Below are positions 27,919 through 63,147 of a DNA stretch of 64,000 nt, one piece after another. Source of the DNA: Argentina anserina (taxonomy: Eukaryota > Streptophyta > Magnoliopsida > Rosales > Rosaceae); assembly GCF_933775445.1 (NCBI RefSeq), contig NC_065875.1, forward strand, positions 26,845,555 to 26,909,554, written 5' to 3'. Positions within the stretch are counted from its first letter, which is position 1; each line of letters begins with the position of its first letter. The notes beneath the pieces are model-generated. The model searched no databases. It saw only the letters and a program-made list of their open reading frames with translations, and was not told the DNA's origin. The translations under genes and the position numbers were made by a program.

Positions 27919-29736
27919 ATGAAGATCGCTTCACCCCTAGCTTTAGTCTCACTCGTCGTCTTCCTCAGCTCGCTCCGCTTCTGCCGCTCGATCGAGGACG
28001 ACCTCACCTGCCTCGCCGGCGTCAAGCGCTCGCTGGCCGACCCCGACGGCCGCCTCAGCCAATGGAACCTCGCCAACAACTCCGTCGCCTCAATCTGCAA
28101 GCTCGTCGGAGTTTCGTGCTGGAACGAGAAGGAGAATCGCCTCCTCAGCCTCCAGCTCCCGTCGATGAGCCTCGCCGGCGAGCTACCGGAGTCGCTCAAG
28201 TACTGCCACAGCCTCCAAACCCTAGATCTCTCCGGCAATGCTCTCTCCGGTCCGGTCCCGCCGCAAATCTGCGACTGGCTACCTTATCTCGTGACTCTAG
28301 ATCTCTCTAGTAACCGTCTCTCCGGCTCGATTCCGCCGGAGATTGTCAACTGTAAGTTTCTGAACACTCTGATTCTGAACGATAACCGTCTTTCCGGTTC
28401 GATTCCGTATGAGCTTGGCCGGCTGGACCGGTTGAAGAAGTTTTCAGTGGCCAATAATGGCCTTTCCGGCACAATCCCGCCGGAACTGTCCAAATTCGAA
28501 AAGGACGATTTCGAAGGGAACGGTAAGCTGTGTGGGAAGCCGCTGGGGTCGAAATGCGGCGGCCTGAGCGGCAAAAGCCTCGGGATTATAATCGCCGCCG
28601 GGGCTATCGGCGCGGCGGCGTCTCTGGTTTTGGGGCTGGTGATTTGGTGGTGGTTTTTTATTAGGGGAAGTAAGAAAAAGCAAAGCTTTGGTGGTGTTGG
28701 TGTGAAAGGTGAGAGTGGCTGGGTTGGTTTGTTGAAGTCACACAAGCTTGTTCAGGTTTCTCTGTTTCAGAAGCCCATTGTGAAAGTCCGGTTAGCTGAT
28801 TTGTTGGTGGCTACAGGCAATTTCGACGCGCAAAACATTGTCATTTCGGGGAGAACAGGGGTGTCGTACAAGGCGGTGTTGCCTGATGGGTCTGCATTGG
28901 CGATCAAGAGGCTTGGTGGGTGTAAACTCGGAGAGAAGCAGTTTAGGTTGGAGATGAATAGGTTGGGGCAGCTGAGGCATCCGAATTTGGTGCCTTTGTT
29001 GGGGTTCTGTGTTGTGGAGGAAGAGAAGCTTTTGGTGTATAAGCACATGTATAATGGTACATTGTACTCGCAGTTGCATGGGAGTGGTAATGTGAGTAGC
29101 CAGTATGGTTTTTTGGATTGGTTGACACGGTTGAGGATTGGTGTGGGAGCAGCAAGAGGACTTGCTTGGCTTCATCATGCTTGCCAGCCGCCGCAGATGC
29201 ACCAGAACATTAGCTCGAATGTGATTCTTCTTGATTATGATTTTGAGGCTCGGATAACGGATTTTGGATTGGCGAGGCTGGTGGGTTCTCGTGATTCAAA
29301 TGATAGCTCGTTTGTGAATCTAGGAGAGATTGGTTATGTTGCTCCGGAGTATTCGAGCACAATGGTTGCGTCGTTAAAAGGGGATGTCTATGGATTCGGG
29401 GTAGTTCTTTTGGAATTGATTACCGGACAGAAACCTTTAGAAATCAGTAATGTAGTGGAGGGGTTCAAGGGGAATTTGGTGGACTGGGTGTCTGGCTTAT
29501 CAAACACTGGTAGGAATGTTGATGCCGTAGACAATGTCTTAGCAGGGAAAGGTCATGATGATGAAATTTTACAGTTCATGAGGGTGGCTTGCTCTTGCGT
29601 GGTTGCTAGGCCAAAAGATAGGCCTTCTATGCATCAAGTTTACGAGTCATTGAAGAGCTTGGCTGATAAACACGGTTTCTCTGAACAGTACGATGAATTT
29701 CCATTGATATTGGGCAAGCAGGTTCCTGAATCTTGA
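27919..29736 (+). CDS. BIR-type LRR receptor pseudokinase
   Basis: An intronless frame of 605 residues. A signal peptide (1-24) is followed by an LRR N-cap (DLTCLAGVKRSL) with a GVSC cap motif, about five LRRs (70-195), a short Cys pair cap, a transmembrane helix (about 222-247) and a kinase fold (about 300-585). The nucleotide loop is degenerate (SGRTGVSYKA). The AIK lysine is present and DFG is intact (ITDFGLARL). The HRD catalytic loop reads HQNISSN, so the catalytic Asp is gone. This is the pattern of BIR2/BIR3-like proteins, which bind BAK1 and restrain brassinosteroid and immune receptor complexes at the plasma membrane. Position beside GT92 and PP2A matches At1g27190/At1g69990. It appears intact and probably expressed. 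Confidence 0.93.
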   Translation: MKIASPLALVSLVVFLSSLRFCRSIEDDLTCLAGVKRSLADPDGRLSQWNLANNSVASICKLVGVSCWNEKENRLLSLQLPSMSLAGELPESLKYCHSLQTLDLSGNALSGPVPPQICDWLPYLVTLDLSSNRLSGSIPPEIVNCKFLNTLILNDNRLSGSIPYELGRLDRLKKFSVANNGLSGTIPPELSKFEKDDFEGNGKLCGKPLGSKCGGLSGKSLGIIIAAGAIGAAASLVLGLVIWWWFFIRGSKKKQSFGGVGVKGESGWVGLLKSHKLVQVSLFQKPIVKVRLADLLVATGNFDAQNIVISGRTGVSYKAVLPDGSALAIKRLGGCKLGEKQFRLEMNRLGQLRHPNLVPLLGFCVVEEEKLLVYKHMYNGTLYSQLHGSGNVSSQYGFLDWLTRLRIGVGAARGLAWLHHACQPPQMHQNISSNVILLDYDFEARITDFGLARLVGSRDSNDSSFVNLGEIGYVAPEYSSTMVASLKGDVYGFGVVLLELITGQKPLEISNVVEGFKGNLVDWVSGLSNTGRNVDAVDNVLAGKGHDDEILQFMRVACSCVVARPKDRPSMHQVYESLKSLADKHGFSEQYDEFPLILGKQVPES

Positions 29737-38758: not shown

Positions 38759-40747
38759 GGAACAAATTTGGGAAAATTTATTATATGTAACCAATACATA
38801 ATTTATTTAACGTACTTCTTTAATATTATTAGTCTATTTTTACTATATTTATTTCTAATTAGTTACTCATATTTAAATAATTTTTTTATCTTTCACCGCG
38901 TGCATGTTTACTATACTATTGAGTAATATAATTGGTTAGATACACCACATGACAGTGTCACGTAGTGTTCCGGGTACACATAATAATTACTCTAAATCTA
39001 GGAATTAGATGAATTTCCAAGTCAACGTACTTCAAGTTTACTGATCACTCTCTGATGCTGCCATGCATATAGCGAACTGGACGAGAGCATATAGATACCA
39101 TTACTTCCAAGCTCGATCTTTTTTATTTTTCTGATGGTGGTAGACCGGTAGTTGCTCCATTTTGAACCACGGAGCTCTTTAATCTTGGTCTGTAAAGTAT
39201 ATATGCTATAAAAGATAAAGAGGAGGATGTAAAGCTCGGTTCAGTTAATTGATTAATTAGTTCTCACTTTGAAGAGTTCGGAATGGACCAATACAGTAGT
39301 AGCAGTACTTCCAGCATTATATATGTACGTTTAACCAGACGAATCTAGGTGGGAATTGAAAATAATCGACCAACACTTCCAGATGCAAAACACCTTTAAT
39401 ATAAATAGATGGTGGATTGGTGGAATTCACTTTAAAGCACTACAGCATGCAGTTTTGGAACTCATGCCAATGATGCCATTCTGTTTAATTTAGATGTTTT
39501 AGAATCTTCAACAAGGGCCAAAGCTAAAGCCAAATATGGATAATCATTGTAAATTATCAGAAAGTAAAAGAAAAATAAGAAATAACAATAATACATATAT
39601 ATATATGTATATATGATATATCTCGGCGACATTACCGATATATATATATATATTCCATAATGTCTTTATATGCTGCATGCAATTTAAATAGATATTGATC
39701 TTCTCTCTTCTATATCTACTAAAAAACTAAAATCTGTCGAGCCTACTAAAGTTGAGTTTCTGAAACAGTTAATTTTCTCTGTGGCTAGCTAGATACGATC
39801 TTTTTGAACTTGCATGAGATCGAGCGAGGAAAGTCGAGCGTATGTATTGTGTATCACTCAACTTTCATTTCATTTACCCGTCTAACTGTCTGTGAAACCA
39901 ATTTCCAATTAGTTTTGAAGATTTTATATGCTGTAGTTCCAGGATATATACGAAATACACACACACACACACATTAGCCTAATATTAATAATTAAGGTAA
40001 GATACACATAGGCATCTATCTTCATCAATTGAGCTCGTACGCCCGTCATCGTCTTTGATATGCACTCCCTGCTGAACTTAGCTCTGTAGAGTACTGCTCC
40101 ACTGGTTAAGCGTGGCCAGGCGGTCGCCCGGAGTTGCCAGATCTCCTGTATGATAAAGAAAAGAGTGAGAAATACGTCCAAGTAGTAATTGATCGAAGTC
40201 TCTAAACTAAGGTGAAGGCCTCTGTTCTAATTAGGGTTGTTTGCTTTATGCATATATTTACTTCGTTAGGACCAAGATACGTACCGTCATGTGTCTCGAT
40301 CGTTCATTGTTTTGATTGCAGTATTTAGTGATTCTAGTTGCGTTGTAGTTTAAATACAGACTGATCAATTGCATGCCTAGATCGAGCTAATAAGGTAATT
40401 GCAGCCTATTTGCTGTTTATTTTCATACTAACGTACTATCGCAGCTCGCGATTCTTATTCTCAAGTATCCTGAGCCCTAATAAAGGCGAAATGCTGAAGG
40501 AGAAAGAGAACACAAGATGGAACATTATTTAGCCAATTAGCCTTAAACAAGCATCACTAAGATATGGAATGGAATAAAGTGAAGATACATACTTTATTTC
40601 TCTTTTGTCCAAGTGAGAAAATATATGGGAGATAAATAACTGTACCTAAATATGCTTAAACTGTTTGCAACAAATCCAAGGAACGGTTTATTTTCCATAA
40701 CGATGACCAATGGAACAATTCAAGCATGAGAGGGCATCTTAGTGACT
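38759..40747. other. Intergenic, AT-rich, with a small GC-rich island
   Basis: AT microsatellite-like sequence lies at about 39590-39655, including a palindromic ATATATATATATGTATATAT stretch. A GC-richer island (about 40030-40145) keeps an open frame on the minus strand with an acceptor-like CATACAG before it. I cannot identify it. Confidence 0.35.
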
Positions 40748-40757
40748 TAGTTTACAT

Positions 40758-41187
40758 CAATGTTTTAAAAAGCGAAGACGTACTCTAAGACATTTTCTTG
40801 AAAGTCTTGAGCAATAAAACTTGAGGTGCATTAGACGTAAGTCTTATGTTATAAAAAAATTAGTAGTTAAATATGTAAATATATAATTATACACGTACAA
40901 AAAAACAAATATATATAAGAACTTATCAATTTATTACATTTTGATATAATGAAATTCCTAATCTAAACATTTTGTATAGTTTTCATCAATTTAAACACAC
41001 AATATATAAAAATATAAAAATATATCTAAAACGATTATTTTTAAGGCATAGTAAAATGCGTGAAAACGTAGCTATAAACGTAAAATGCGTAAGCTTCATT
41101 GCCTAGACCGAAAAACATATGCGTTATGTAAGTAACTTTAAAATTTTTAAGCATCAGATGAGTCTTGAGACGAGTTTTTTAAAACAT
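40758..41187. mobile_element. ~430-bp MITE-like element
   Basis: The ends are inverted (ATGTTTTAAAAA at the left, TTTTTTAAAACAT at the right), with further complementary sequence inside (CTCTAAGAC against GAGTCTTGAG). The near-identical 10-mers TAGTTTACAT (40748-40757) and TAGTTTGCAT (41188-41197) flank it and could be the target duplication. The class is uncertain. Confidence 0.5.
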
Positions 41188-41507
41188 TAGTTTGCATGTT
41201 TATTCGTTTTAATAATTTAATTCTTTGTACACTTCATTGTGGGTGCCCTAAACATAAAAGTTTCTCTGAGATTTATGCACATGAAAGACAAACAGTCAAA
41301 CAAGATCAAGAATCCGTGTTAAAATTAAACCTAAAAAACTAGCTTGATTGGGTGAAGAAAGGAAGAAATTCATTTTATCCACACGTACATTTCAGTCTAG
41401 TTGCGGGTTGCGACGGAAAATAGAATATGTGAATGAGCATTATATATATTTTCAGATCGGAAATGAGATCCAACAAGCTTTTGATGAATGTCCTCACGTA
41501 CTCTTAT

Positions 41508-41547
41508 TCACCGTTGCCGATCGATTCTATAAAACCACATATAAGGG

Positions 41548-41589
<42 letters not shown>

Positions 41590-41883
41590 GGTACCTGTTG
41601 TGAATAGGATCCGGGCCATTTGGAACTCTTCTTTTGCTCATATAGTTGAGATCCAGCTCCGGATGAACAAGTTTCTGATCTTCGGGCTTCATACTCGTAC
41701 CTGAAAACTGATACGATGAAGCTGATGATGGGGTCATATGTGTACTCTTTGTTGACCCTATGCCTCCTTGAGCTTGATCAGTAGAAGTCGAGTCTAGCGT
41801 AGCAACCAACAAAACCAAGATAAAGCCTACCACCATGGCTGTTCCCAACAGTACCTTAACAAAGCAAGAAGAAACACGATCGT
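41508..41883 (-). pseudogene. CLE25/26-like peptide gene, 3' part, separated from its start by a retrotransposon
   Basis: Minus-strand exon 41595-41883 encodes a hydrophobic signal-anchor stretch (MVVGFILVLLVATLDSTST), a variable linker and the CLE motif KRRVPNGPDPIHN. The motif has the RxVPxGPDPIHN form of CLE25/26, ligands of CLV1-family receptors in phloem and drought signalling. A donor at 41595/41594 and an acceptor at 41527 would add exon 41508-41526 (IDRQR and stop). No ATG lies between the LTR and codon 23 of the original frame. The first eight codons are now at 52937-52960, and the two parts match in frame across the 5-bp target duplication. An internal ATG at 41834-41836 precedes the hydrophobic core and could still start a secreted precursor. 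Confidence 0.8.
41551..41585. repeat. (AT)n microsatellite in the CLE intron
   Basis: About 17 AT units just after the predicted splice donor of the CLE gene on the minus strand. Reading through it makes a spurious Tyr-Ile tail. Confidence 0.9.
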
Positions 41884-44800
41884 TGTAACGACCCTAAAAT
41901 TTCGAGCTTCAAAACTCAAAATCTTAGGATCGTTAAACACAAAAATAATCTCAAATAAACCGAAATCATTTTAATGTCGCAGCGGATCATTTCTGAGTTC
42001 TCAATACAACTCAGACAACCAATTATTACAACCCAAATTATAATCCATACACAAAATGGAAATGTAATAATTCTCACAAATCACTCACAAATCTCACAAA
42101 TGAAAATACACAAATCCTCACACACGAATCCATGCTAAAATCTCACCACAAGTAGGATCCGAACGACTTCGAGCCTCTGTAGTCGTCACTCAACCACCAC
42201 TAATCAGCACCTGCAGAATTATCCCCTACACCATCGAATTGGTGCACCGGGATTGTAAACACAAACCCGGTAAGCTTATAGCTCGTATGAGTAAAATCAC
42301 AATACAGTTCGCATATCAATATATACGAAAGATCACAACACAACAAATATAAATGCCCCCATGAGCCAATGGTCAGCCCATCTGGTTGACCCAAAGAAAT
42401 AGGAAATGAAAAGCTCATGAGGAAATTAAGTAACCCTTCTGGTTACCCAATGCATTTATAATACGGGTACCAAGAACGCTGGTACACATCTGTTACCCCT
42501 CTCGTAATACACCGTTGATATTGGATAGCCACCCGCTACCCAACATCCAAAATACACCGAGTACCCATGAGCAGATAACCACCCGTTACCTCACATGCAG
42601 TACTAAGGCAGACAGACTAGAGCTCTAACTGTATCGTAACTTTCGCCCGGCCAAAGGCTAGGTTCCGACTTGCCAAACACGCACAATAATCTCACATCAT
42701 ATTGTGCCAAAAATCAGGTCCGAAGACAATTCACATTTTAACAATCTCAATGTTAAAAATCACGTACAATAATCCCACATCATATTGTACCACACATCAC
42801 GTCCGAAGACAAATCACAATTTTTTTTTAACATTCTCCGTGATAAAATCATGTACAATAATCACTCATCATATTGTACGTTTTAAAACTTTCACGATATC
42901 ACCACAATAAAAATCATAACAGTATATTATATAGCAAACTATATATATTCGTATTTATTACCATTTATACAATATATACATAGTCCACTATATCCTATAC
43001 ATGTCATATTTCATAAACACCTGAAGAATTACGTACAATATTCTCACATACTCATGCTCAATTTTCCGTCACCGAAATGACTATTTTTAATGCATTAATA
43101 ACAGTACGTAATTTAATGAACTATATATATATTATGTACCTATTACCATTATACTATATATATGTAGTCCACTAAATTATATACATGTTATAATTCATTT
43201 GATACACACACATGCCAAATGTTGAATCACCACAAGGGTAGATTCGTAAATTCAGTGAGATTTTACTCACCTTATTGACTTGAGCGTAATTCCTCAATTT
43301 CCGATAATAATCCCTTTCCTCGATTTAGCGATCACCTTAAAAAGATAAAACAAGAATTTAGAATCGTTTCGTAAACCTTTAAATGCCAAAACAGTAATAT
43401 ACGGTACTGTTCAGCAATTTGGTTATACGAAGTTACTGTTCACTGTTCACTATTCACGGTTACTGTACAATACTCCATTAATACGTATTTCTGTACGTAT
43501 AAATATTTAATACGTATTTCTGTACGTATAAATATTAAATACGTATTTCTGTACGTATAAATATTAAATACGTATTTTCTGTACGTATAAATATTAATAC
43601 GTATTTCTATACGTATAAATATTAATACGTATTTCTGTACGTATAAATATTAATACGTATTTCTGTACGTATAAATATTAATACGTATTTCTGTACGTAT
43701 ACGTACGATTTAATGTAAATACAAATTCAGTAAATAAAATTTACTAAATTACCCTTTTTACAATTTACTTTTTACATTTACTGAAAGTAAATTATAATTA
43801 CATTTACCGTAGGTAAAACTTAATTACATTTACCGCAGTAAATAAAAATTACATTTACGTTTACCGTACACAGTAAATTACCAAAATACCCCTTCATTCA
43901 AAACTAATTACACCGCCTCGTATGGCGGCGCGTGTGGCACACGCGCCACCTCCGGCCGGCAGCGCGTGGGGCCCACGCGCCGAGCCCAAAACCGGCGCGT
44001 GTGGCGCCACCACCACCCCAAAACCGTCCTCCTTCCTCCCCTCTTCCTCCCTCCGCTCCTAAGCAGCCCTTACACCACCCCACGCCTCCCCACGCGCCGC
44101 CTCTAGGCGGCGGTATCTCCTCTCCTCTTCCTCCTCCAATCCCCCACCAAAACACCACAAATCGATCCACAATTACAACAACAACATCACAATGACCAAT
44201 CCTAGCTAAACCTCACCTTGATTCGAACCTTTGGATTGTCAAATCGACGTTGATGAGCTTGAGGTGCCGGCGGCCTTGCAGTTGAGAAGCGGCGGTGCTT
44301 GTCGCGGTTTCCAATAGCCGATTGTGTCACCGGAGGCACTAGGGGTGAGGAGAGATGATGGTGATGCAGCTCAAGTCTTGGTCTCACCGGTGGAGTGTTT
44401 TGGGCGACTGTGAATCGCGCGGTTTCGGTGAGAGGGAGAGGATGAGGTGACAGTGAGAGGGAGATGGAAAAGAGCGATCGGTGAGGGGGAGAGGGGGAGC
44501 GATCGGTGAGGGGGAGAGGGGGAGCGATCGGTGAGGGCGAGAGGGATCCGAGTGAGGGAGAGAGAGAGAAGGTCGGGAGAGTGAGAGAGAAGAGAGAAAG
44601 GGAGAGCGGCGGAATGAGAGAGAAGGGAGAGAAAGGGTTTCTGATTATGGAAACCCTAATCCCATAGTTATCTATTTATACTAGTTTCCAAATCGGAAAC
44701 TAACTTCCGACGTTAATAACTTTTACTTCCGACGTCCGATTCGAACGCGTCACATATACACGAACTCGTATCGACGAGCTCTACAACTTCCGTGAAGAAA

Positions 44801-44999
44801 GTTTTCACAACCGAGCGACGAAATGAAAGTTGATAAATTCGTTCGGAAACGTAACGTTTTCTTATTAAACGTTCTCGGAACGCTTCCGTTTCCGTTTCGT
44901 AACGATTGCTAACAACTCAAATTCGATTTAAAAACAAACTTCACAACTCAATAGAATTTAATTAAATTCAAATATTGTTTGAAAACGTGGGTTATTACA
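41884..44999 (-). repeat. LTR (3' LTR of the element), left copy
   Basis: 3,116 bp. Contains the 28-bp tandem array at about 43479-43712, a GC-rich block (43904-44195), a purine-rich block with GATCGGTGAGGG-type repeats (about 44466-44545) and a terminal AT-rich part. Short open frames in the GC-rich block are composition artefacts. In element orientation it lies directly upstream of the remaining CLE coding sequence. Confidence 0.95.
43479..43712. repeat. Tandem array in the LTR, about eight ~28-bp units
   Basis: Units read TAATACGTATTTCTGTACGT followed by ATAAATAT with small variations. Each contains palindromic TACGTA/GTAC cores. The same array is at 51416-51649 in the other LTR. Confidence 0.9.
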
Positions 45000-45000
45000 A

Positions 45001-45014
45001 TCTACCCCCCTTAA
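45001..45014 (-). other. Polypurine tract of the retrotransposon
   Basis: On the minus strand, AAGGGGGGTAGA lies directly before the 3' LTR. It is the expected primer for plus-strand DNA synthesis. Confidence 0.85.
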
Positions 45015-45039
45015 AGGAATTTCGTCCCGAAATTCGAGT

Positions 45040-48000
45040 TCACTCAACAAACAACTGTGGATATCTGGTCATCATGTCCGACTCTAGCTCCCATGATGCA
45101 TCACCCTCATCATGGTGACTCCACAACACTTTGACTAGCCCAACTTCTCTTCTCCGAAGCTTCTTTGTGGATCTATCCAGGATACGAACCGGTTCGACCA
45201 CAAATGTAGCATTTTCCTTCACCTCAATGGTGCTATGATCAATCACATGTGACTCATCTGGTACATACTTCCTTAACATGGAAATGTGGAAGACATTGTG
45301 AACACCCGACATACTAGTAGGCAAGGCTAGGCGATATGCTAGTTCGCCCACCTTCTCAAGTATCTCAAAAGGCCCAACATACCTCGGTGCCAATTTTCCC
45401 TTCTTGCCGAATCTCACTACGCCCCTCATAGGTGAAACTTTCAAGAACACATGATCACCAATCTCGAACTCCACATGTCTCCTCTTCAGGTCTGCATAGC
45501 TCTTCTGTCTACTCTGAGCGGTCCGGATTCTGTCTCGAATGATCGAGATCTTCTCCGTGGTTTCCTGAACCACCTCTGGACCCATCAGTGCCTCATCACC
45601 AACTTCGGCCCAACAGATCGGAGATCGACATGGTCTACCATAAAGTGCCTCATAAGGTGCCATGCCGATGCTAGAATGGTAGCTGTTGTTGTAGGCAAAC
45701 TCAATCAATCTCAAATGATCTTCCCAGCTACCCTTGAAATCCAACACACATGCTCTCAACATGTCCTCCATCACCTGATTCACCCTCTCCGTCTGTCCAT
45801 CCGTCTGAGGGTGAAAAGCTGTACTCATATCCAAGGTAGTGCCCATCGCCTTCTGCAAACCACCCCAGAACTTCGAAGTGAAACGTGCATCTCTATCGGA
45901 AACAATAGAAACTGGAGCACCATGAAGTCTCACTACCTCATCCACATATAGTTTCCCAAGCACGTCCACTGAGTACTTCATCGACACTGGGAGAAAATGA
46001 GCCGACTTCGTCAATCGGTCGACAATTACCCATATGGCATCGTGACCCTTCCTCGATCTAGGCAACCCGGTCACAAAATCCATAGATATCTGCTCCCACT
46101 TCCAAAGAGGAATAGTCAGTGGTTTCAACATGCCAGCTGGTCGTTGATGTTCTGCTTTCACTTGCTGACATGTAAGGCACTTCGATACAAACTCTGCTAC
46201 ATCTTTCTTCATACCGTTCCACCAGAATTGTCTGCATAGGTCCTTGTACATCTTGGTGTTCCCTGGATGGACGGTATAGCGTGAACGATGTGCCGTACGA
46301 AGAACTTCCTCCCGAAGATCATCACAATCTGGGACACACAACCTTGCCCCAAACCTCAACCCTCCATCGGGTCCAACTCTCCACTCAGAAGGACACTCAT
46401 CAAGCGTATCAACTACAAGATCCGCCAACTTGGCTCGTGAGTGTCTATCCTGCGCCTGACCCTGTATGATCCTCGTGATCAATGTGGGTTGCACTGTGAC
46501 ACTACCAAGAAAGACCCTTGGTTCTCCTCCCGATGGTACCAAATCAAACTCTGATGCAGCTTCTAGCATGAACCATTCCTGGACCATAAGAGAAGCTACC
46601 ACACCTCTCGGTTTCCTGCTCAAGGCATCCGCCACCACATTTGCCTTCCCCGGGTGGTACTCTAATGTGAAGTCATAGTCCTTGAGGAGTTCCATCCACC
46701 TCCTCTGCCTCATATTCAGCTCCTTTTGTGAGAATAAGTACTTCAAACTCTTATGATCTGAGAAGAGTTGAAATTTCTCCCCATACAAGTAATGTCTCCA
46801 AATCTTCAGTGCAAATACTACTGCCGCCAGCTCTAGGTCGTGTGTCGGATAATTCTTCTCATGAATCTTCAACTGTCTCGAGCCATATGCAACAACTCCT
46901 CCATTCTGCATCAACACACAACCCAAACCTTGGAGCGAAGCATCACTGTAAATGACATAGCCACCACCACTAGAGGGAATCGTCAACACTGGAGCTGTGG
47001 TCAGTCTAGTCTTTAGCTTGCTGAATGCTTCCTCACATGCATCCGTCCACACGAACGGAGTATCTTTCTTGGTCAACTTGGTCAATGAAGATGCGATACT
47101 AGAAAACCCCTCGATAAACCTCCTGTAGTAACCTGCCAACCCGAGGAAACTACGTATCTCTGTAGGGTTCTTTGGACGACTCCAATTCTTCACTGCCTCT
47201 ACCTTTGCTGGGTCCACTAGTACTCCATCTTTTGAGACAACATGACCAAGGAATTTGACCTCTTCTTTCCAGAACTCACACTTCTCTAGCTTGGCATACA
47301 GTCTCGCCTCCTTCAAGGTCTGCAACACTGTTCTCAGATGCACCACATGTTCTTCTTGTGTCTTGGAGTATATCAGAATGTCATCCACAAACACCACTAC
47401 GAACTCATCCAAGTATGGACTAAATACTTGGTTCATCAAACTCATGAAGACAGCTGGTGCATTCGTTAGACCAAATGGCATGACAACAAACTCATAATGT
47501 CCATACCGGGTCCTGAAGGCTGTCTTCGATATATCTTCTTCCTTCACTCTGAGTTGATGATAACCGGATCTCAAATCAATCTTTGAGAACACTGTAGCAC
47601 CTTTGAGCTGATCGAACAAGTCATCAATCCTAGGTAAGGGATACCTATTCTTGATGGTCACCTTGTTCAGTTCTCTGTAGTCCACACATAACCGCAGAGA
47701 ACCATCTTTCTTCTTCACGAACAAAACAGGTGCTCCCCAAGGTGAAACGCTAGGTCTAATGAACCCTTGATCTAATAACTCATCGATCTGCACCTTCAGC
47801 TCCTTAAGTTCATTCTGCGCCATTCTATATGGCGCCTTTGACACAGGTGCTGTACCGGGTACTATATCAATGCAGAAATCTACCACTCTTCGAGGAGGTA
47901 GCCCCGGTATCTCTTGGAACACTTCACCAAACTCAGATACTACCACAATGTCTGTGATAGTCACTTCCTGATCCACTGACTCCACATGTGCCAAAACTCC

Positions 48001-49532
48001 TGATCTCATGGCGTTGTCGGACTTGAGGCAACGATAACGAAACACTGGCTCTCCAGGTCTATGAAAGGACACTACCATGTCGAAACAATCAATCACAGCA
48101 TGTTGTGGTCTCAACCAATCAATCCCCAAGATCACATCATAAGTGTGGTCCGGAATCACAATCAACGAAGCAGAGAACTCTCTACTCCCAATCAATATAG
48201 GACAAGCTTTGCAGATTGTCTCTAACTCAAGTGACACTCCAAGGGGTGAAGTGACACATAAGGCGTCCCCGAGAGGTGTAGGAATCAATCCTAGCATCTC
48301 CACTACCGAACTAGCAATGAATGAATGTGATGCTCCCGTATCAAACAACACTCTAGCAAGGTAGTCAAAAAGTGATAATGTACCTTCCACCCCTGTATCT
48401 CGCTGACCCACTGCGAACACTCTAGCTTGACCCGCTGGTAGCTGTCTCTGCGGCCGTTCCTGTCTACCCGGAAGTGGTCGGGTACAATCTCGAGCTATGT
48501 GTCCCACTTGCCCGCACCGGTGGCAGCCTGCTCTCTTCGGTTTCGGACATGCTGAGGCGTAATGTCCCATCTCATTGCAGCTATAACACCTCACTGCTGC
48601 TAATGGTCTGACTGGTGCTGCTCTGATGGCTAAGGGTGGCGCCCTTGTCGGGGCCTGATAGTGGGGTCTTGGCCTCTTCCATGACCTATCCTTCGGCCCT
48701 GAGTGCTCGCTGCCTGTATAGACTGCCTTGCCTTTCCCCTTCGCATCTCTGTTCCCCACGTCACCTGCTCGAGTCTTCTCTGCTTGCTCCAAACTCATAG
48801 CACTCTCAAATATCTGCTCCCGTGAAGTCAGGCAAAGGACTGATATCATGGTCTTGTACTCTTGCTTCAGCCCACGTAGATACTTCTGAGCTAAAGCAGT
48901 CGCACCCATAGGCCTGACATACCGATACAGTTGCGAGAATCGAGCATCATACTCTCTAATGGTCATGTCTCCCTGTACCAATGCCAGAACTCCAACTCTA
49001 AGTCCTCCTGTACTGAGGCTGGGAAATACTTCTCTTGGAATATGGTGGTGAAATCTCCCCATGTGAATGTAGACACATCCACAATCTGTCTCATGCTCTT
49101 CCACCAATCTAGAGCATCACCCTTGAGAAAGAATGTAGCTATCTTTCTCTTCTCAATCTCTGTGCACTCTATCATCTCAAAATAAGTCTCCATACCCTCG
49201 ATCCAATGGTCAGCTACCATGTGATCTAGTCCCCCATGAAATGTCGGAGCTGACAGTGCACTAATATCCTTGATCAGCTTCAACACTCGACCGTCATCTC
49301 TAACCGCAGGAGCTGGCTCATCCTGCTCCTCCTGCGGAGCAGCCTCCTCATAGAGGTTCTCCACGTTGCGGACTCGACCTGTGGCCCTACCTCGACCTCG
49401 GCCTACCCGCTCTACCTGTGGAGCAGCCTCCTCATAAAGGTTCTCCACGTTGCGGACTCGGCCCGCGGTCCTACCTCGACCACGTCCTCTCGCCCGTCCT
49501 CGGCCCTGTCCTCGGCCCTTATCAGCGTTCAT
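45040..49532 (-). CDS. gag-pol: Gag-Pol polyprotein of the Ty3/gypsy element, with a one-base frameshift in gag
   Basis: Translation should start at ATG 49530-49532 (MNADKGRG), giving a Gly/Arg-rich start and the gag core ([35 protein letters not shown]). The frame is then lost around 48990-49000. The second frame resumes with [14 protein letters not shown] and runs uninterrupted to the stop at 45040. It holds two zinc knuckles ([28 protein letters not shown]), an aspartic protease ([11 protein letters not shown]), reverse transcriptase (FVDDIL), RNase H ([10 protein letters not shown]), an integrase with HHCC zinc site and DDE residues, and a chromodomain-like tail. Apart from the frameshift I see no lesion. 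The shift probably prevents normal Gag-Pol synthesis unless it is a sequencing error. Confidence 0.93.
49330..49500 (-). repeat. Internal duplication in the gag N-terminus
   Basis: The segment [16 protein letters not shown] with its Arg/Gly-rich lead occurs twice in tandem in the predicted gag start, with highly similar DNA (GGTTCTCCACGTTGCGGACT on the plus strand in both). It looks like a recent ~100-bp duplication. Confidence 0.85.
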
Positions 49533-49805
49533 CACCTTCAAACAACGAAACACTTAGTCAACACTTGTGAAATCTCGAATTCAACTAAAACAGATTCAAT
49601 AGGTATTAACATGAAATTTCAGCATATGATGAATCATCGAAGTATCATCACGATACATCTCGGAGGACCAAACCATTAGGTATGGCTCCTAAAACACTCT
49701 CGCGTACCCGACGACATATCAATACCGAGGAGCATGTGATGGGGGCCCGCCTGCAGTCGGATCATCGCTCCCGGATGATATTGATAATCGCCAAATACGC
49801 ACTTA

Positions 49806-49818
49806 GGCTCTGATACCA
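49806..49818 (-). other. Primer-binding site (initiator tRNA-Met)
   Basis: On the minus strand TGGTATCAGAGCC starts two bases after the end of the 5' LTR and is complementary to the 3' end of plant initiator Met-tRNA. Confidence 0.92.
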
Positions 49819-49820
49819 AC

Positions 49821-52800
49821 TGTAACGACCCTAAAATTTCGAGCTTCAAAACTCAAAATCTTAGGATCGTTAAACACAAAAATAATCTCAAATAAACCGA
49901 AATCATTTTAATGTCGCAGCGGATCATTTCTGAGTTCTCAATACAACTCAGACAACCAATTATTACAACCCAAATTATAATCCATACACAAAATGGAAAT
50001 GTAATAATTCTCACAAATCACTCACAAATCTCACAAATGAAAATACACAAATCCTCACACACGAATCCATGCTAAAATCTCACCACAAGTAGGATCCGAA
50101 CGACTTCGAGCCTCTGTAGTCGTCACTCAACCACCACTAATCAGCACCTGCAGAATTATCCCCTACACCATCGAATTGGTGCACCGGGATTGTAAACACA
50201 AACCCGGTAAGCTTATAGCTCGTATGAGTAAAATCACAATACAGTTCGCATATCAATATATACGAAAGATCACAACACAACAAATATAAATGCCCCCATG
50301 AGCCAATGGTCAGCCCATCTGGTTGACCCAAAGAAATAGGAAATGAAAAGCTCATGAGGAAATTAAGTAACCCTTCTGGTTACCCAATGCATTTATAATA
50401 CGGGTACCAAGAACGCTGGTACACATCTGTTACCCCTCTCGTAATACACCGTTGATATTGGATAGCCACCCGCTACCCAACATCCAAAATACACCGAGTA
50501 CCCATGAGCAGATAACCACCCGTTACCTCACATGCAGTACTAAGGCAGACAGACTAGAGCTCTAACTGTATCGTAACTTTCGCCCGGCCAAAGGCTAGGT
50601 TCCGACTTGCCAAACACGCACAATAATCTCACATCATATTGTGCCAAAAATCAGGTCCGAAGACAATTCACATTTTAACAATCTCAATGTTAAAAATCAC
50701 GTACAATAATCCCACATCATATTGTACCACACATCACGTCCGAAGACAAATCACAATTTTTTTTTAACATTCTCCGTGATAAAATCATGTACAATAATCA
50801 CTCATCATATTGTACGTTTTAAAACTTTCACGATATCACCACAATAAAAATCATAACAGTATATTATATAGCAAACTATATATATTCGTATTTATTACCA
50901 TTTATACAATATATACATAGTCCACTATATCCTATACATGTCATATTTCATAAACACCTGAAGAATTACGTACAATATTCTCACATACTCATGCTCAATT
51001 TTCCGTCACCGAAATGACTATTTTTAATGCATTAATAACAGTACGTAATTTAATGAACTATATATATATTATGTACCTATTACCATTATACTATATATAT
51101 GTAGTCCACTAAATTATATACATGTTATAATTCATTTGATACACACACATGCCAAATGTTGAATCACCACAAGGGTAGATTCGTAAATTCAGTGAGATTT
51201 TACTCACCTTATTGACTTGAGCGTAATTCCTCAATTTCCGATAATAATCCCTTTCCTCGATTTAGCGATCACCTTAAAAAGATAAAACAAGAATTTAGAA
51301 TCGTTTCGTAAACCTTTAAATGCCAAAACAGTAATATACGGTACTGTTCAGCAATTTGGTTATACGAAGTTACTGTTCACTGTTCACTATTCACGGTTAC
51401 TGTACAATACTCCATTAATACGTATTTCTGTACGTATAAATATTTAATACGTATTTCTGTACGTATAAATATTAAATACGTATTTCTGTACGTATAAATA
51501 TTAAATACGTATTTTCTGTACGTATAAATATTAATACGTATTTCTATACGTATAAATATTAATACGTATTTCTGTACGTATAAATATTAATACGTATTTC
51601 TGTACGTATAAATATTAATACGTATTTCTGTACGTATACGTACGATTTAATGTAAATACAAATTCAGTAAATAAAATTTACTAAATTACCCTTTTTACAA
51701 TTTACTTTTTACATTTACTGAAAGTAAATTATAATTACATTTACCGTAGGTAAAACTTAATTACATTTACCGCAGTAAATAAAAATTACATTTACGTTTA
51801 CCGTACACAGTAAATTACCAAAATACCCCTTCATTCAAAACTAATTACACCGCCTCGTATGGCGGCGCGTGTGGCACACGCGCCACCTCCGGCCGGCAGC
51901 GCGTGGGGCCCACGCGCCGAGCCCAAAACCGGCGCGTGTGGCGCCACCACCACCCCAAAACCGTCCTCCTTCCTCCCCTCTTCCTCCCTCCGCTCCTAAG
52001 CAGCCCTTACACCACCCCACGCCTCCCCACGCGCCGCCTCTAGGCGGCGGTATCTCCTCTCCTCTTCCTCCTCCAATCCCCCACCAAAACACCACAAATC
52101 GATCCACAATTACAACAACAACATCACAATGACCAATCCTAGCTAAACCTCACCTTGATTCGAACCTTTGGATTGTCAAATCGACGTTGATGAGCTTGAG
52201 GTGCCGGCGGCCTTGCAGTTGAGAAGCGGCGGTGCTTGTCGCGGTTTCCAATAGCCGATTGTGTCACCGGAGGCACTAGGGGTGAGGAGAGATGATGGTG
52301 ATGCAGCTCAAGTCTTGGTCTCACCGGTGGAGTGTTTTGGGCGACTGTGAATCGCGCGGTTTCGGTGAGAGGGAGAGGATGAGGTGACAGTGAGAGGGAG
52401 ATGGAAAAGAGCGATCGGTGAGGGGGAGAGGGGGAGCGATCGGTGAGGGGGAGAGGGGGAGCGATCGGTGAGGGCGAGAGGGATCCGAGTGAGGGAGAGA
52501 GAGAGAAGGTCGGGAGAGTGAGAGAGAAGAGAGAAAGGGAGAGCGGCGGAATGAGAGAGAAGGGAGAGAAAGGGTTTCTGATTATGGAAACCCTAATCCC
52601 ATAATTATCTATTTATACTAGTTTCCAAATCGGAAACTAACTTCCGACGTTAATAACTTTTACTTCCGACGTCCGATTCGAACGCGTCACATATACACGA
52701 ACTCGTATCGACGAGCTCTACAACTTCCGTGAAGAAAGTTTTCACAACCGAGCGACGAAATGAAAGTTGATAAATTCGTTCGGAAACGTAACGTTTTCTT

Positions 52801-52936
52801 ATTAAACGTTCTCGGAACGCTTCCGTTTCCGTTTCGTAACGATTGCTAACAACTCAAATTCGATTTAAAAACAAACTTCACAACTCAATAGAATTTAATT
52901 AAATTCAAATATTGTTTGAAAACGTGGGTTATTACA
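49821..52936 (-). repeat. LTR (5' LTR of the element), right copy
   Basis: 3,116 bp and collinear with the left LTR at an offset of 7,937 bases. The same internal arrays occur at the shifted positions. The only difference I noticed is A at 52604 where the left copy has G at 44667. Confidence 0.95.
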
Positions 52937-52960
52937 ATCGTCACTACCACCACTACCCAT
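52937..52960 (-). pseudogene. First eight codons of the split CLE gene
   Basis: On the minus strand the sequence starts ATG at 52958-52960 and reads MGSGGSDD up to the retrotransposon edge. The next codons of the gene are at 41878 and below (RVSSCFVKVLLGTAM). Allowing for one copy of the duplicated 5 bp, the frame is continuous across the insertion, which identifies these bases as the original coding start. Confidence 0.75.
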
Positions 52961-58965: not shown

Positions 58966-61900
58966 TTAAAAAGAGCCGAGAAAATTTGCCAGTCGTTCTG
59001 AACGGGATTGCTGGCTTTCGTCTAGTGATTCTTCATCTCCTTCATAATCATCATCACCTTCATAAATCAAATAAATCCCCCACTTCTTCAGCTCCACGCC
59101 TTTCGTAAATGGCGGCTCTCTCCTCTTTACATGTATCTTGTAACCATCTTTCAATAGTGATACCAAAGGATGATCAATTGGATACCGGCACAAGTGAAAC
59201 TGATCATCATTTGTATTCGGTACTCCCGATAAGACCAATGTCGTGGCACACAAGTGAGAATCCAGTATGAGGATCTCGGCTTGAATATCTACCACATCAG
59301 GGAGGTCGTCTCTTAGGTCATCTTCTATCTGATGGTCGAGAGAAACTACAACACATACGATTATACTTTTGAGAGGGCGGTTTTCTCGTTCTGAGAATGT
59401 AACCATTTCTTGAGAAAACCAGTCTGGTATGTTGCTTCCAGGCATGCTAAGATTGCGTATTTTCCTCAAGTACCTCTGCAACATTTTTCTTTTATCAGTT
59501 AGAGCATGCAACTCAGTACCAACACAAATCACACTGCGAGGAAAGTTGACATAAACACAGGAACAACTTACACAGCTGTTTACCAAACAATTATGCCTAC
59601 TCTTAACACCACGTAGAAGCTCAAACATTTTGCATATGATAAACAGTTAAACACACAAGTACGTTTAAAAATAAAAATAAAAACACACAAGGACGTAGAG
59701 AGCGAGAGACGGTACCTTTTCCCCAAGCCTTCTCTCAACAGCTGATGAACGAGCATTGGAGCCACCCATATACAACCTTACCAAGGAATTCAAGCATTCA
59801 AGACCGGCAATATTCTAAACTTTCACACAATTGGCAAGGTTCAGGTCTGTCAAGTTCTCCAGGTTTGAAACATCAGAAATACTCTCTAATGCAATACAGT
59901 TTGCAATATCTACCTTTTTCAGACTTGAGGGAAGCGGAGGCAGAGACTTGAGCTGTCAACAATGAGACAATAAAAGCTCTTGGAGCATGGACATGCCACT
60001 CAGGCTGGCTGGAAGGCGGCAGAAACTATTACGGCTGAGATTCAAAGTTTCAAGCGATGATAACCTCTCAAAATCATCAGAAATTTCACCAGATATATTA
60101 CAAGCACGAGCATCCAGTTCATACAGCAGGGACAAATTTGAGAAGGAAGCTGGAAGTATAAACTCCTCTTCTGTATGTCTCCCAATTTGATGCTTCTTCC
60201 CCATTCTCAAAACCATCAAACTGGAAAGCATTCCGAAGCTTCCAGGTAGTTCTGTCACTGCAGTTTCCACCATGTACAATCGGTGCAAGGATTTTAACTG
60301 TCCTATTGATGCTGGAAGCTTGCGGAACTGTTTACATCTGTCCAACCGTAACATGGTAAGATTTTCTAACATCCCTACAGATTCTGGCAACTCCGTGATA
60401 TTTGGTGCAGTTATAATTATAGAAGTTAGGGCCCTCATTCTTCCAATTGACTCCGGTAATGATGTAAGAAGTTCACAGTTCCTGAGCTCAAGTTTCTCAA
60501 GTGTTTTCAAATCACCAATCTTCTCTGGGAGGTCTTTGATTGATGCCTGCTCTATCTTCAGCTCAACTAAAGAATTCAATTCCCCAACTGAATCAGGCAA
60601 TGAGCTCAATCCTCCAACTGAATCAGTCGTTGAGCTCTGAATTTGGTCCCCAATTTCTAGTTTTCTTAAGCTTGACAAACGGCCAATGGTCACAGGCAGT
60701 TCTGTGAGTGGAGTACCATAAGTACTTAATTCCTTCAAGAATTCGAGTTTCCCAATGGATGTAGGAAGAGCGGTCAGTGATTTACACCAGAGTAAACTTA
60801 GTTTCTCAAGGTTTGCCAAAGAGCCAATAGAATTAGGTAGCTTTTTCAAAGCAGATCCATTCAGGGAGAATTCTTTCAAAGAACACAGCTTTCCAATCTC
60901 CTCAGGTAGCTCCTTTAATACACTGCACCGGTTCAAGCTTAGTTTTTCGAGTTTAGTAAGCCGGAAGATAGATTGGGGAAGAATTTCTATAGCAGTGTCA
61001 TCAAGGAGAAGTTCTTTCAATGACACCAGGCTTTCCATGTTTGGCAGTTTTTTGAACTGGGAAGAACCAGAGAGGATCAGGTACTCGAGCTTTCTAAGGC
61101 CAGAGACATCACTTGGAAGCTCAACAAGCTTTGAACACCTTCGCAAGTTCAAGTGGACTAATGTGTTTAAGTTCCCGATTGAGGCATGAAGCCTAGTCAA
61201 TGAAATACAGCGCTCAAGATTCAGCTGTTGAAGCGCCCGATTCCCAGATAAATCAGGAATTTCAGTTAGGTAAATACAGTTGCTTAGATTCAAGAACATC
61301 AATTTCTCAGCCGCCTGAAATTCAGTATATTATATTTAGACTTTCAGTCAATTCTGCAGATATGCACTGCATTACTGTTTACCTTAGAAATAGAAGTAAG
61401 ATGCTTCTTGCTTGCTAATTAAAAGGAAGCACATATACCTGGTTTTCGTCACCACTGCAGGTCAGACAAGTGAAAAGTGCCATAATACTGCATCCTCCCC
61501 ACAACTTTGTGATATTGCTGTCTGAGAGATCAAGGACAGCGAGTTGCCGAGGTAAATAATCAGAAGGGAGAGAGTTTAAAGGACAACCTTTCCATTGTAA
61601 CCACTTGACTCCCGCAGGAAGAAACTTTAACTTTCCTTCCAATTTCACATTATTCATTTGAAGCAGCCTGAGATTGACCATTGCTCCAAAAGCTTTAGAG
61701 GAAATCTTCACTACTCCCTTTTCCTCTTCTTGGCTTTTAAGATGTGCTTTGTATATTTCCTTTAGGTACGTCATTGCAGAGGTACAATTGGGGCTTCTCC
61801 GAAAGTTATTCCAAGAAATTATGTCACCACCTGGATCACTCACCATCCTTTTCATTTCATAGTCTAGAACAATCCCTTGTATGGATGGTGTTCCCTATTG

Positions 61901-63147
61901 TCAGTGCAATACAAAATATATGAGCTAGCTGAGTCGATAAAGCTCAAGTTATGTGATGAGAAATATATGAACTATGAAGAACAACTTATATTTATATATC
62001 AAATGATATCTACTTATCTAGTACCTTGTCATGCTCGAAAACGTTCATGATTTCATCTCGATCCCACAGTCTACTACGCATGCCAGGATGTGAAATGTTT
62101 TCGTGTGTAACTATCTGTCTTCCCATGTCTCTGACTTGATCGTGCATCCACAGTGTAGTGTCTTCAGCGATCTTAATGAGTGATCTTGCTGTGAGGACAC
62201 TAAGTACTATCTCACCATTAGAACCACAACCCTTCAATATGTCAACTGCGTCTTCTCTTTTGGTCTTCATTTTAACAAATAAACATGCAATGTCTAGAAA
62301 GATACATTTCTCTTGCTCATCTAGCGCATCGTAGCTTATCATCAGTACATCCTGAAGAATCCGTGGACGAATCTGTTTCAGTTTTTGCAGAGCATCTTCC
62401 CATTCCTCTACTCTCCTTTTATCATACAGGCTAGAGCCGAAAACTTCAAGAGCTAACGGTAGTCCACCAGTAAGAGCCACAATTTGCTTAGATAGTTTCA
62501 GAAAGGTATCTGCTGGGATCTCTTTAATTCCCAGTGCATGGTGACTGAAAAGTTCCAGAGCTTGAGACTCATATAACTCCCTGACTTCATACAACTTATG
62601 ATCGACACGATGATTAGTTAAGAGTTCTCTATCTCTCGTCGTAACAATGATTCGGCTTCCATCATAAAACCATTGTCCATTGCCAACTAAGGCACTGAGT
62701 TGGTCGATGTTATCAACATCATCCAGAACAACGAGAACTCGCTTCTCATACACAACCGCTTTGATGGTAGCGATGCCATCAGTTGTCTGATTTATTTTGG
62801 CCTTTTTCCCATGGGAAAGATCACTAATCAGGTTATTTTGAAGAGTTACTAAACCCTCCTCATCGTGTCCTGCTGAGGTTTCTCTAACATTTGAGATGAA
62901 ACTACGGTGATCAAATTTACCAACAAGTCTATTGAAAAGAGCCTTGGCAAGGGTTGTTTTGCCAATGCCGCCCATGCCATAAACTCCGACAACTTGAACG
63001 GTTTTGGATCCGATATCTAACAGCTTGATCACCTCTTCAACTCGGGAAAGAAGTCCCACTGGGTACGGAGTGAGACCCATTGGTATTTTGTTCATTTCTG
63101 CCAAAACATCTTTTACTAATCTTTGAATAATCAAATCTTCTTCATTT
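58966..63147 (-). pseudogene. TIR-class NLR (NB-ARC, LRR, C-JID) with two nonsense codons; 5' exon(s) outside or lost
   Basis: Exons in phase: 62025-63147 (NB-ARC), 61439-61894 (linker and first LRRs), 59716-61314 (LRR array) and 58966-59475 (C-JID). NB-ARC motifs are intact: GVYGMGGIGKTTLAK, kinase-2 VLVVLDDVDN with the terminal D typical of TNLs, SRIIVTTRD, GLPLAL, FLDIACLF and MHD (WMHDQVRDMG). The LRR exon holds about sixteen 23-residue LP..IG.L repeats. It then meets TGA at 59956-59958 and TAG at 59815-59817, after which the frame continues correctly into LRKIRNLSMPGSNIPDWFSQ of the post-LRR domain. No TIR (DVFLSFRG type) is visible to 64000. It is either a recent pseudogene or a truncated receptor lacking the C-JID. 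TNLs are intracellular immune receptors. Confidence 0.85.

What the first reader, a model, noticed from the sequence alone, without database searches (positions are those of the whole stretch)
41508..52960. A CLE signalling-peptide gene cut after codon 8 by a very young LTR retrotransposon
Bases on the two sides of the 11-kb element join, after removing one copy of the ATCGT duplication, into one reading frame: MGSGGSDD on the right, RVSSCFVKVLLG and the rest on the left, ending in a CLE25/26-type motif (RRVPNGPDPIHN). The joined precursor would be 108 residues including a small second exon. The insertion separates the promoter and start codon from the body.
Basis: partly seen in the sequence, partly recalled or inferred. 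Interest (0 to 1): 0.88.

Follow-up and report, generated by a model that had tools for sequence, protein, structure and literature searches.

The report
Plant hormone gene split by retrotransposon
In the sequenced haplotype of silverweed, a gene for a small CLE25-type signalling peptide has its start codon cut off from its body by a recently inserted 11-kb retrotransposon, probably silencing that copy, although an intact related gene for the same peptide remains and three other haplotypes were not seen.

Summary
The window fits chromosome 4 of Argentina (Potentilla) anserina. A Ty3-type LTR retrotransposon (41884-52936; LTRs of 3116 bp differing at one site; 5-bp duplication ATCGT) sits inside a minus-strand CLE25-type gene. 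Without the element and one duplication copy the flanks form an open frame, MGSGGSDD|RVSSCFVKVLLG..., which matches the Rosa and Fragaria orthologues from their start. The public model of this locus (LOC126791656, 93 aa) is exactly residues 23-115, starting at a methionine inside the severed body. Four sister copies elsewhere are also young. Most likely this is a loss-of-function allele: the native start now encodes a 21-residue stub. The consequence may be small: the plant is tetraploid, only one of four haplotypes is assembled here, and an intact old paralogue on contig 6 encodes the same 12-residue peptide. Whether the insertion is heterozygous, fixed or private could not be tested. It is a clean new example of a known kind of event, comparable to the copia insertion in rose RoKSN.

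The parts
52937..52960 (-). Severed 5' end of the CLE gene: ATG and codons 1-8 (MGSGGSDD), including the right copy of the target-site duplication
   Evidence: aligns with Rosa P0002 from residue 1
52937..52941 (.). Target-site duplication, right copy (ATCGT)
49821..52936 (-). LTR next to the start codon (5' LTR in the element's own orientation), 3116 bp
   Evidence: followed by TGGTATCAGAGC, like a tRNA primer site (the site name is recalled)
48963..49553 (-). N-terminal gag frame of the element; gag goes on in another frame in the next ORF, so gag is frame-shifted in this copy
   Evidence: ORFs; Retrotrans_gag profile positions 1-55 here, 49-96 in the other ORF
45040..49107 (-). Rest of gag and pol: zinc knuckle, protease, RT, RNase H, integrase zinc-binding and SH3-like domains (RT before integrase: Ty3/Gypsy)
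41884..44999 (-). LTR next to the gene body (3' LTR in the element's orientation), 3116 bp, holding the one substitution that separates the two LTRs
41879..41883 (.). Target-site duplication, left copy (ATCGT)
41595..41883 (-). Body of CLE exon 1, codons 9-103 (with the left duplication copy); no in-frame ATG between the LTR's stop codon and Met23
41834..41836 (-). Met23 codon, start of the public 93-aa model LOC126791656
41597..41632 (-). CLE motif RRVPNGPDPIHN (residues 91-102)
40146..41594 (-). Intron, 1449 bp, AG|GT donor and CAG acceptor; holds an (AT)n array and a dispersed repeat
   Evidence: for the array, for the repeat
40106..40145 (-). True exon 2: RSGNSGRPPGHA and stop TAA (first codon shared with exon 1)

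Best explanation
A recently active Ty3-type LTR retrotransposon inserted, in the same orientation as the gene, between codons 8 and 9 of a CLE25-type peptide-hormone gene of Argentina anserina. Shown: the insertion with its 5-bp duplication, the open empty-site frame, the gene's two-exon structure, and an intact paralogue. Inferred: the allele is a null or near-null. Transcripts from the native promoter would encode MGSGGSDD plus 13 residues of LTR sequence and then stop, and the body with the hydrophobic leader core and the CLE motif has lost its promoter and start codon. Inferred: the loss is tolerated because other haplotypes of the tetraploid and/or the paralogue on contig 6, which encodes the same dodecapeptide, supply the hormone.
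For: LTRs 3115 of 3116 identical, 5-bp duplication. The joined frame matches Rosa and Fragaria CLE25 from the start (the alignment used the 108-aa version) and in the tail, and groups with them at 100/100 support. From the native ATG the reading stops in the LTR after 21 residues, also if only a solo LTR were left. In this assembly the 5' flank has 1 match and the body 1 strong match. Intact 99-aa paralogue P0121 with RRVPNGPDPIHN. Four other full-length copies with 5-bp duplications and LTR pairs differing at 0, 0, 3 and 1 sites point to a recent burst. The species is tetraploid and the assembly is one haplotype of four (PMC11162522, section 5 read).
Against: A public gene model covers the severed body (P0001); if it rests on RNA reads, the body is transcribed. 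Met23 gives an open frame with a hydrophobic beginning, so a product might still be secreted. No expression data could be seen here, and no empty-site DNA from another haplotype or relative.
Confidence: 0.78

Rival explanations
1. The insertion rewires rather than kills the gene: the adjacent LTR (same orientation) or a cryptic promoter in it transcribes the body, and translation starts at Met23, giving a precursor with a shortened leader but an intact CLE motif under retrotransposon control.
For: Element and gene have the same orientation. Met23 opens a 93-aa product identical to the public model. The 11 residues starting at Met23 are the most hydrophobic 11-mer among those starting in the first 40 residues, mean 3.36. 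TATA-like sites in the LTR, e.g. 44680, 42460, 42325.
Against: The TATA-like site at 44680 lies about 2.8 kb before Met23, and 46 ATGs lie between the LTR's beginning and Met23. Residues 1-22, lost in this form, hold the leader's arginine and lysine. No RNA evidence was seen. Homologues rarely start there (3 of 118).
Confidence: 0.13
2. The insertion is a private or low-frequency allele of no consequence, present on one of four haplotypes and absent from the others and from other accessions. This concerns its effect on the plant and is compatible with the best explanation of the allele itself.
For: Tetraploid, one haplotype in this assembly. One substitution between the LTRs implies roughly 12-23 thousand years at two recalled rates, outer 95% bounds about 0.3-128 thousand years.
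Against: Not testable here; no result speaks against it.
Confidence: 0.55
3. Assembly or polishing artefact.
For: The assembly was curated from a tetraploid, with haplotypic duplications removed.
Against: Exact 5-bp duplication and primer-site and purine-tract anatomy, assembly from HiFi reads, four sister copies with paired LTRs and 5-bp duplications.
Confidence: 0.02

Closest known systems
RoKSN copia allele of rose (PMC8012652, passages seen)
   Same: A young LTR retrotransposon with identical LTRs interrupts a developmental gene in a relative from the rose family, and its product is no longer accumulated.
   Different: RoKSN is a TFL1-type floral repressor with a known phenotype, and its LTR-only derivative is hypomorphic. 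Here the element splits a short peptide-hormone coding exon, a solo LTR would still stop the frame after 21 residues, and the phenotype is unknown.
CLE25 and CLE26 of Arabidopsis (PMC10863546, passages seen)
   Same: Same hormone type; in Arabidopsis CLE25 acts in drought signalling, and the CLE26 peptide differs from it by one residue.
   Different: The Argentina gene is interrupted; its motif is RRVPNGPDPIHN. Function in Argentina untested; the Arabidopsis sequences themselves were not compared here.
Rosa and Fragaria CLE25 orthologues P0002, P0003
   Same: 78% identity each in the alignment (108-aa version), same start region, same tail; one group with the joined frame at 100/100 support.
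   Different: Uninterrupted; 115 and 113 aa.
Argentina CLE25 paralogue P0121 on contig 6
   Same: Identical 12-residue motif and an intron at the same place after HN.
   Different: Intact, 99 aa; on the other side of a branch with 99/92 support.

Membership tests
CLE peptide hormone genes, CLE25 type | C-terminal 12-residue CLE motif | tested here: met
   RRVPNGPDPIHN at 41632-41597; the same 12-mer in 114 of the 120 listed homologues
CLE peptide hormone genes, CLE25 type | Precursor with start, leader and tail as in orthologues | tested here: met
   for the joined frame only:
CLE peptide hormone genes, CLE25 type | N-terminal secretion signal | tested here: inconclusive
   strongly hydrophobic stretch from residue 23; no signal-peptide predictor was used
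CLE peptide hormone genes, CLE25 type | Contiguous start codon and body (working gene) | tested here: not met
   an 11,053-bp element (41884-52936) between codons 8 and 9; this is a broken allele of such a gene
CLE peptide hormone genes, CLE25 type | Pfam profile match | tested here: inconclusive
   PF27922.1 is precomputed for P0001 and most of the 120 listed homologues, but the local Pfam copy reported it for none of the 5 proteins, intact orthologues included, nor for the 108-aa version; the copy probably lacks that model
Ty3/Gypsy LTR retrotransposons | Paired LTRs, 5-bp target-site duplication, primer site, polypurine tract | tested here: met
   (what a primer site looks like is recalled)
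Ty3/Gypsy LTR retrotransposons | RT before integrase in pol | tested here: met
   RVT_1 at residues 464-623, Integrase_H2C2 at 930-985; the integrase core profile itself scores below its cut-off (18.1 against 32.6)
Ty3/Gypsy LTR retrotransposons | Continuous gag-pol frame | tested here: not met
   gag lies in two frames; a property of this copy, not of its membership
Tekay chromovirus lineage | C-terminal chromodomain and RT phylogeny | tested here: inconclusive
   Chromo profile 13.1 bits, cut-off 25.1; no RT tree was made

The most novel reading that the evidence does not exclude
The insertion has not killed the peptide gene but put it under retrotransposon control. A methionine in the body that the rose and strawberry orthologues lack (Met23; they have Ala there) serves as a new start at the edge of the leader's hydrophobic core, so the hormone RRVPNGPDPIHN is made from LTR-driven RNA in new places, on one haplotype of a tetraploid.
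Probability: 0.1. Interest if true: 0.65.

Novelty: new member of a known kind. Interest (0 to 1): 0.36.

Why it matters
It is a natural, datable break of a CLE25-type hormone gene, a type tied to drought signalling in Arabidopsis (PMC10863546), in a wild tetraploid plant. It shows that the public 93-aa 'uncharacterized protein' LOC126791656 is the severed part of an interrupted CLE25 gene. It also offers an empty-site marker for how recently this retrotransposon family has been active. The effect on the plant is unknown and may be nil.

Tried and rejected
The first protein, Pfam, PDB and own-genome searches and the alignment used the 108-aa version; one search repeated only Pfam with the 115-aa version, and searches used 115 aa.

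Removal of the whole element by splicing was not modelled. A plasmid-collection search with part of the 5' flank and a PDB sequence search found nothing. Paper searches: CLE genes with retrotransposon insertions gave 2 papers, of which I saw one passage of one (it speaks of RoKSN) and only the listing of the other; a second wording gave 0; CLE family in Fragaria gave 4 listed papers of no evident use; CLE25/CLE26 with Rosaceae gave 3 listed papers, not read. The library holds open-licence papers only, so this is weak evidence of absence.

In the LTR comparison copy A was cut by motif to 2992 bp, and its LTRs differ from those of the other copies at 139-140 sites; copy D's right LTR carries 29 extra bases relative to its left one. 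In one search, 2 of 120 homologues were dropped because no residue aligned to G26. In one search I had chosen 25 proteins by hand and labelled Nelumbo as window-type beforehand; on the midpoint-rooted drawing it lies on the paralogue's side of the root, though the 13 window-type rows are still one side of a branch.

Full report
Where the window lies. The own-genome search places it at C4:26845555-26909554 of an assembly of 236,821,716 bases in 146 contigs. The best protein match to the joined frame is an Argentina anserina protein on a contig of 27,772,565 bases. The silverweed genome note gives chromosomes 4, 6 and 7 as 27.77, 37.35 and 24.26 Mb in a 237.1-Mb assembly of 148 scaffolds (PMC11162522, section 5 read); contigs C6 and C7 here are 37,345,693 and 24,256,894 bases. 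I take the window to be drPotAnse1.1 of Argentina (Potentilla) anserina.

The insertion. Two 3116-bp LTRs at 41884-44999 and 49821-52936 differ at 1 site, and ATCGT is duplicated at 41879-41883 and 52937-52941. In the element's orientation (minus) the LTR beside the start codon is followed by TGGTATCAGAGC, which I recall as a usual tRNA primer site, and a purine-rich stretch precedes the other LTR. The inside encodes gag, protease, RT, RNase H and integrase-type domains in Ty3 order. Gag lies in two overlapping frames, so this copy as it stands does not encode one continuous Gag-Pol. The chromodomain profile is below its cut-off (13.1 against 25.1 bits), so the lineage is not settled; a 2025 paper says that Tekay dominates the Gypsy elements of this species (PMC12320355, first part of the text read).

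Youth. For one 973-base LTR piece 40 candidates were scored out of 2922 in the first look; ten rows, this element's own two among them, are at 100%. They form five full-length pairs: this one and four others, with 5-bp duplications CATAT, CTTCC, AGTGT and ATTTG and with 0, 0, 3 and 1 substitutions between their LTRs; one pair also differs by 29 bases of insertion, and one copy's LTRs are divergent from the rest over part of their length. The one difference in the window appears to be a change in the left LTR, since the right LTR is nearer to each of the four sister copies by one site. With two recalled rates, 7e-9 and 1.3e-8 per site per year, one difference means about 23 or 12 thousand years, with Poisson bounds of 0.6-128 or 0.3-69 thousand years. 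A 2021 paper puts the species' LTR burst at about 0.18 million years (PMC8700974, passages seen).

The gene. With the element and one duplication copy left out, an open frame runs from ATG 52960: MGSGGSDD from the right, RVSSCFVKVLLG onward from the left. Intact aligned relatives instead end in tails such as RRTGNSGRPPGQA, and such a tail is encoded at 40145-40106 behind a CAG acceptor. From the same donor it gives 115 residues, the length of the Rosa protein P0002. Public protein P0001 (LOC126791656, 93 aa) equals residues 23-115 letter for letter. That the annotators' model starts at Met23 because the true start lies 11 kb away is my inference.

Start codon. The Rosa and Fragaria orthologues start in the same place and share the leader. 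Of 118 listed homologues with a residue aligned to G26, 3 have fewer than 10 residues before it, P0001 among them; the median is 22. At position 23, 7 of 117 aligned homologues have Met (a count that includes this locus's own model) and 61 have Ala; Rosa and Fragaria have Ala. An in-frame ATG 11 codons upstream, at 52993, means that the severed piece could be 19 rather than 8 codons.

What happens now. From the native ATG the reading enters the LTR and stops after 21 residues. It would do so also if only a solo LTR were left; in rose RoKSN the LTR-only allele is hypomorphic (PMC8012652, passages seen). In the frame of the body there is no ATG between the last stop codon in the LTR and Met23, and 46 ATGs lie between the beginning of that LTR and Met23. 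TATA-like sites exist in the LTR (44680, 42460, 42325 and others), but no transcript data could be seen. I therefore favour a null or near-null allele and keep LTR-driven expression of the Met23 form as the bold alternative.

Back-up copies. The assembly is of one haplotype; [quoted passage not shown] The genome note compares the plant with an autotetraploid cytotype, whereas a 2025 paper calls the species an allotetraploid with subgenomes A and B. In this assembly the 5' flank has one match and the body one strong match, so no empty site or second allele was seen. The own-genome protein search found 4 places: this locus, C6 at E 2.2e-4, and two weak ones (E 0.3 and 0.4) that I did not follow. 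The C6 gene reads through as an intact 99-residue precursor, matches public protein P0121 at 100% over its whole length and carries the same RRVPNGPDPIHN. A tree of 25 hand-chosen proteins puts the window gene with Rosa and Fragaria at 100/100 and has one branch at 99/92 between the 13 window-type and the 12 C6-type proteins. Both types occur in Rosa, Prunus, Malus, Ziziphus, Morus, Rhamnella and Populus, so the pair is old.

Function from the literature. In Arabidopsis CLE25 is required for drought resistance, and the CLE26 peptide, which differs by one residue, acts in drought memory (PMC10863546, passages seen). A 14-residue peptide SKRRVPNGPDPIHN was applied to Medicago seedlings in 2008 (PMC2254619, passages seen); the same stretch is in this precursor. 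I found nothing on this gene in Argentina: the term CLE as a gene was not seen in the passages of PMC8700974, and CLE and CLAVATA do not occur in the main text of PMC12320355.

Verdict. This is a real and well-resolved gene disruption. The consequence for the plant is open, and ploidy plus a paralogue make a mild one likely. It is a new example of a known kind.

Noticed in passing
L010 (C6:35301698 region), ORF 1387-1737 and exon 2 from about L010 2491: Intact paralogue with the same 12-residue CLE motif, named CLE25 of Argentina anserina in public sources (P0121); its exon 2 encodes the rest of the tail RRAVKTRQPAGRA.
   Followed up: yes
window 41836: Public model LOC126791656 ('uncharacterized protein', 93 aa) starts at Met23 and appears to be an annotation consequence of the insertion.
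   Followed up: yes
window 52993: In-frame upstream ATG, 11 codons before the start used in relatives.
   Followed up: no
G000 C7:23.68 Mb, C7:13.38 Mb, C7:7.26 Mb, C6:25.36 Mb: Four full-length sister copies with 5-bp duplications and 0-3 LTR substitutions; the first has LTRs that differ from the others over part of their length.
   Followed up: partly
window 41002-41204: Dispersed repeat of about 190 bp inside the intron; 39 further scored matches at 78-83% identity in the genome.
   Followed up: no
window 59956-63095, minus strand: NB-ARC (with a Roq1-like winged-helix domain) and LRR frames of a disease-resistance type gene.
   Followed up: no
window 27919-29736 and 15-1766, plus strand: An LRR receptor-kinase-like ORF of 605 aa and a glycosyltransferase family 92 ORF of 583 aa.
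   Followed up: no
L011 (C2:26349126) and L012 (C5:8252694): Weak CLE-like matches (E 0.306 and 0.437).
   Followed up: no
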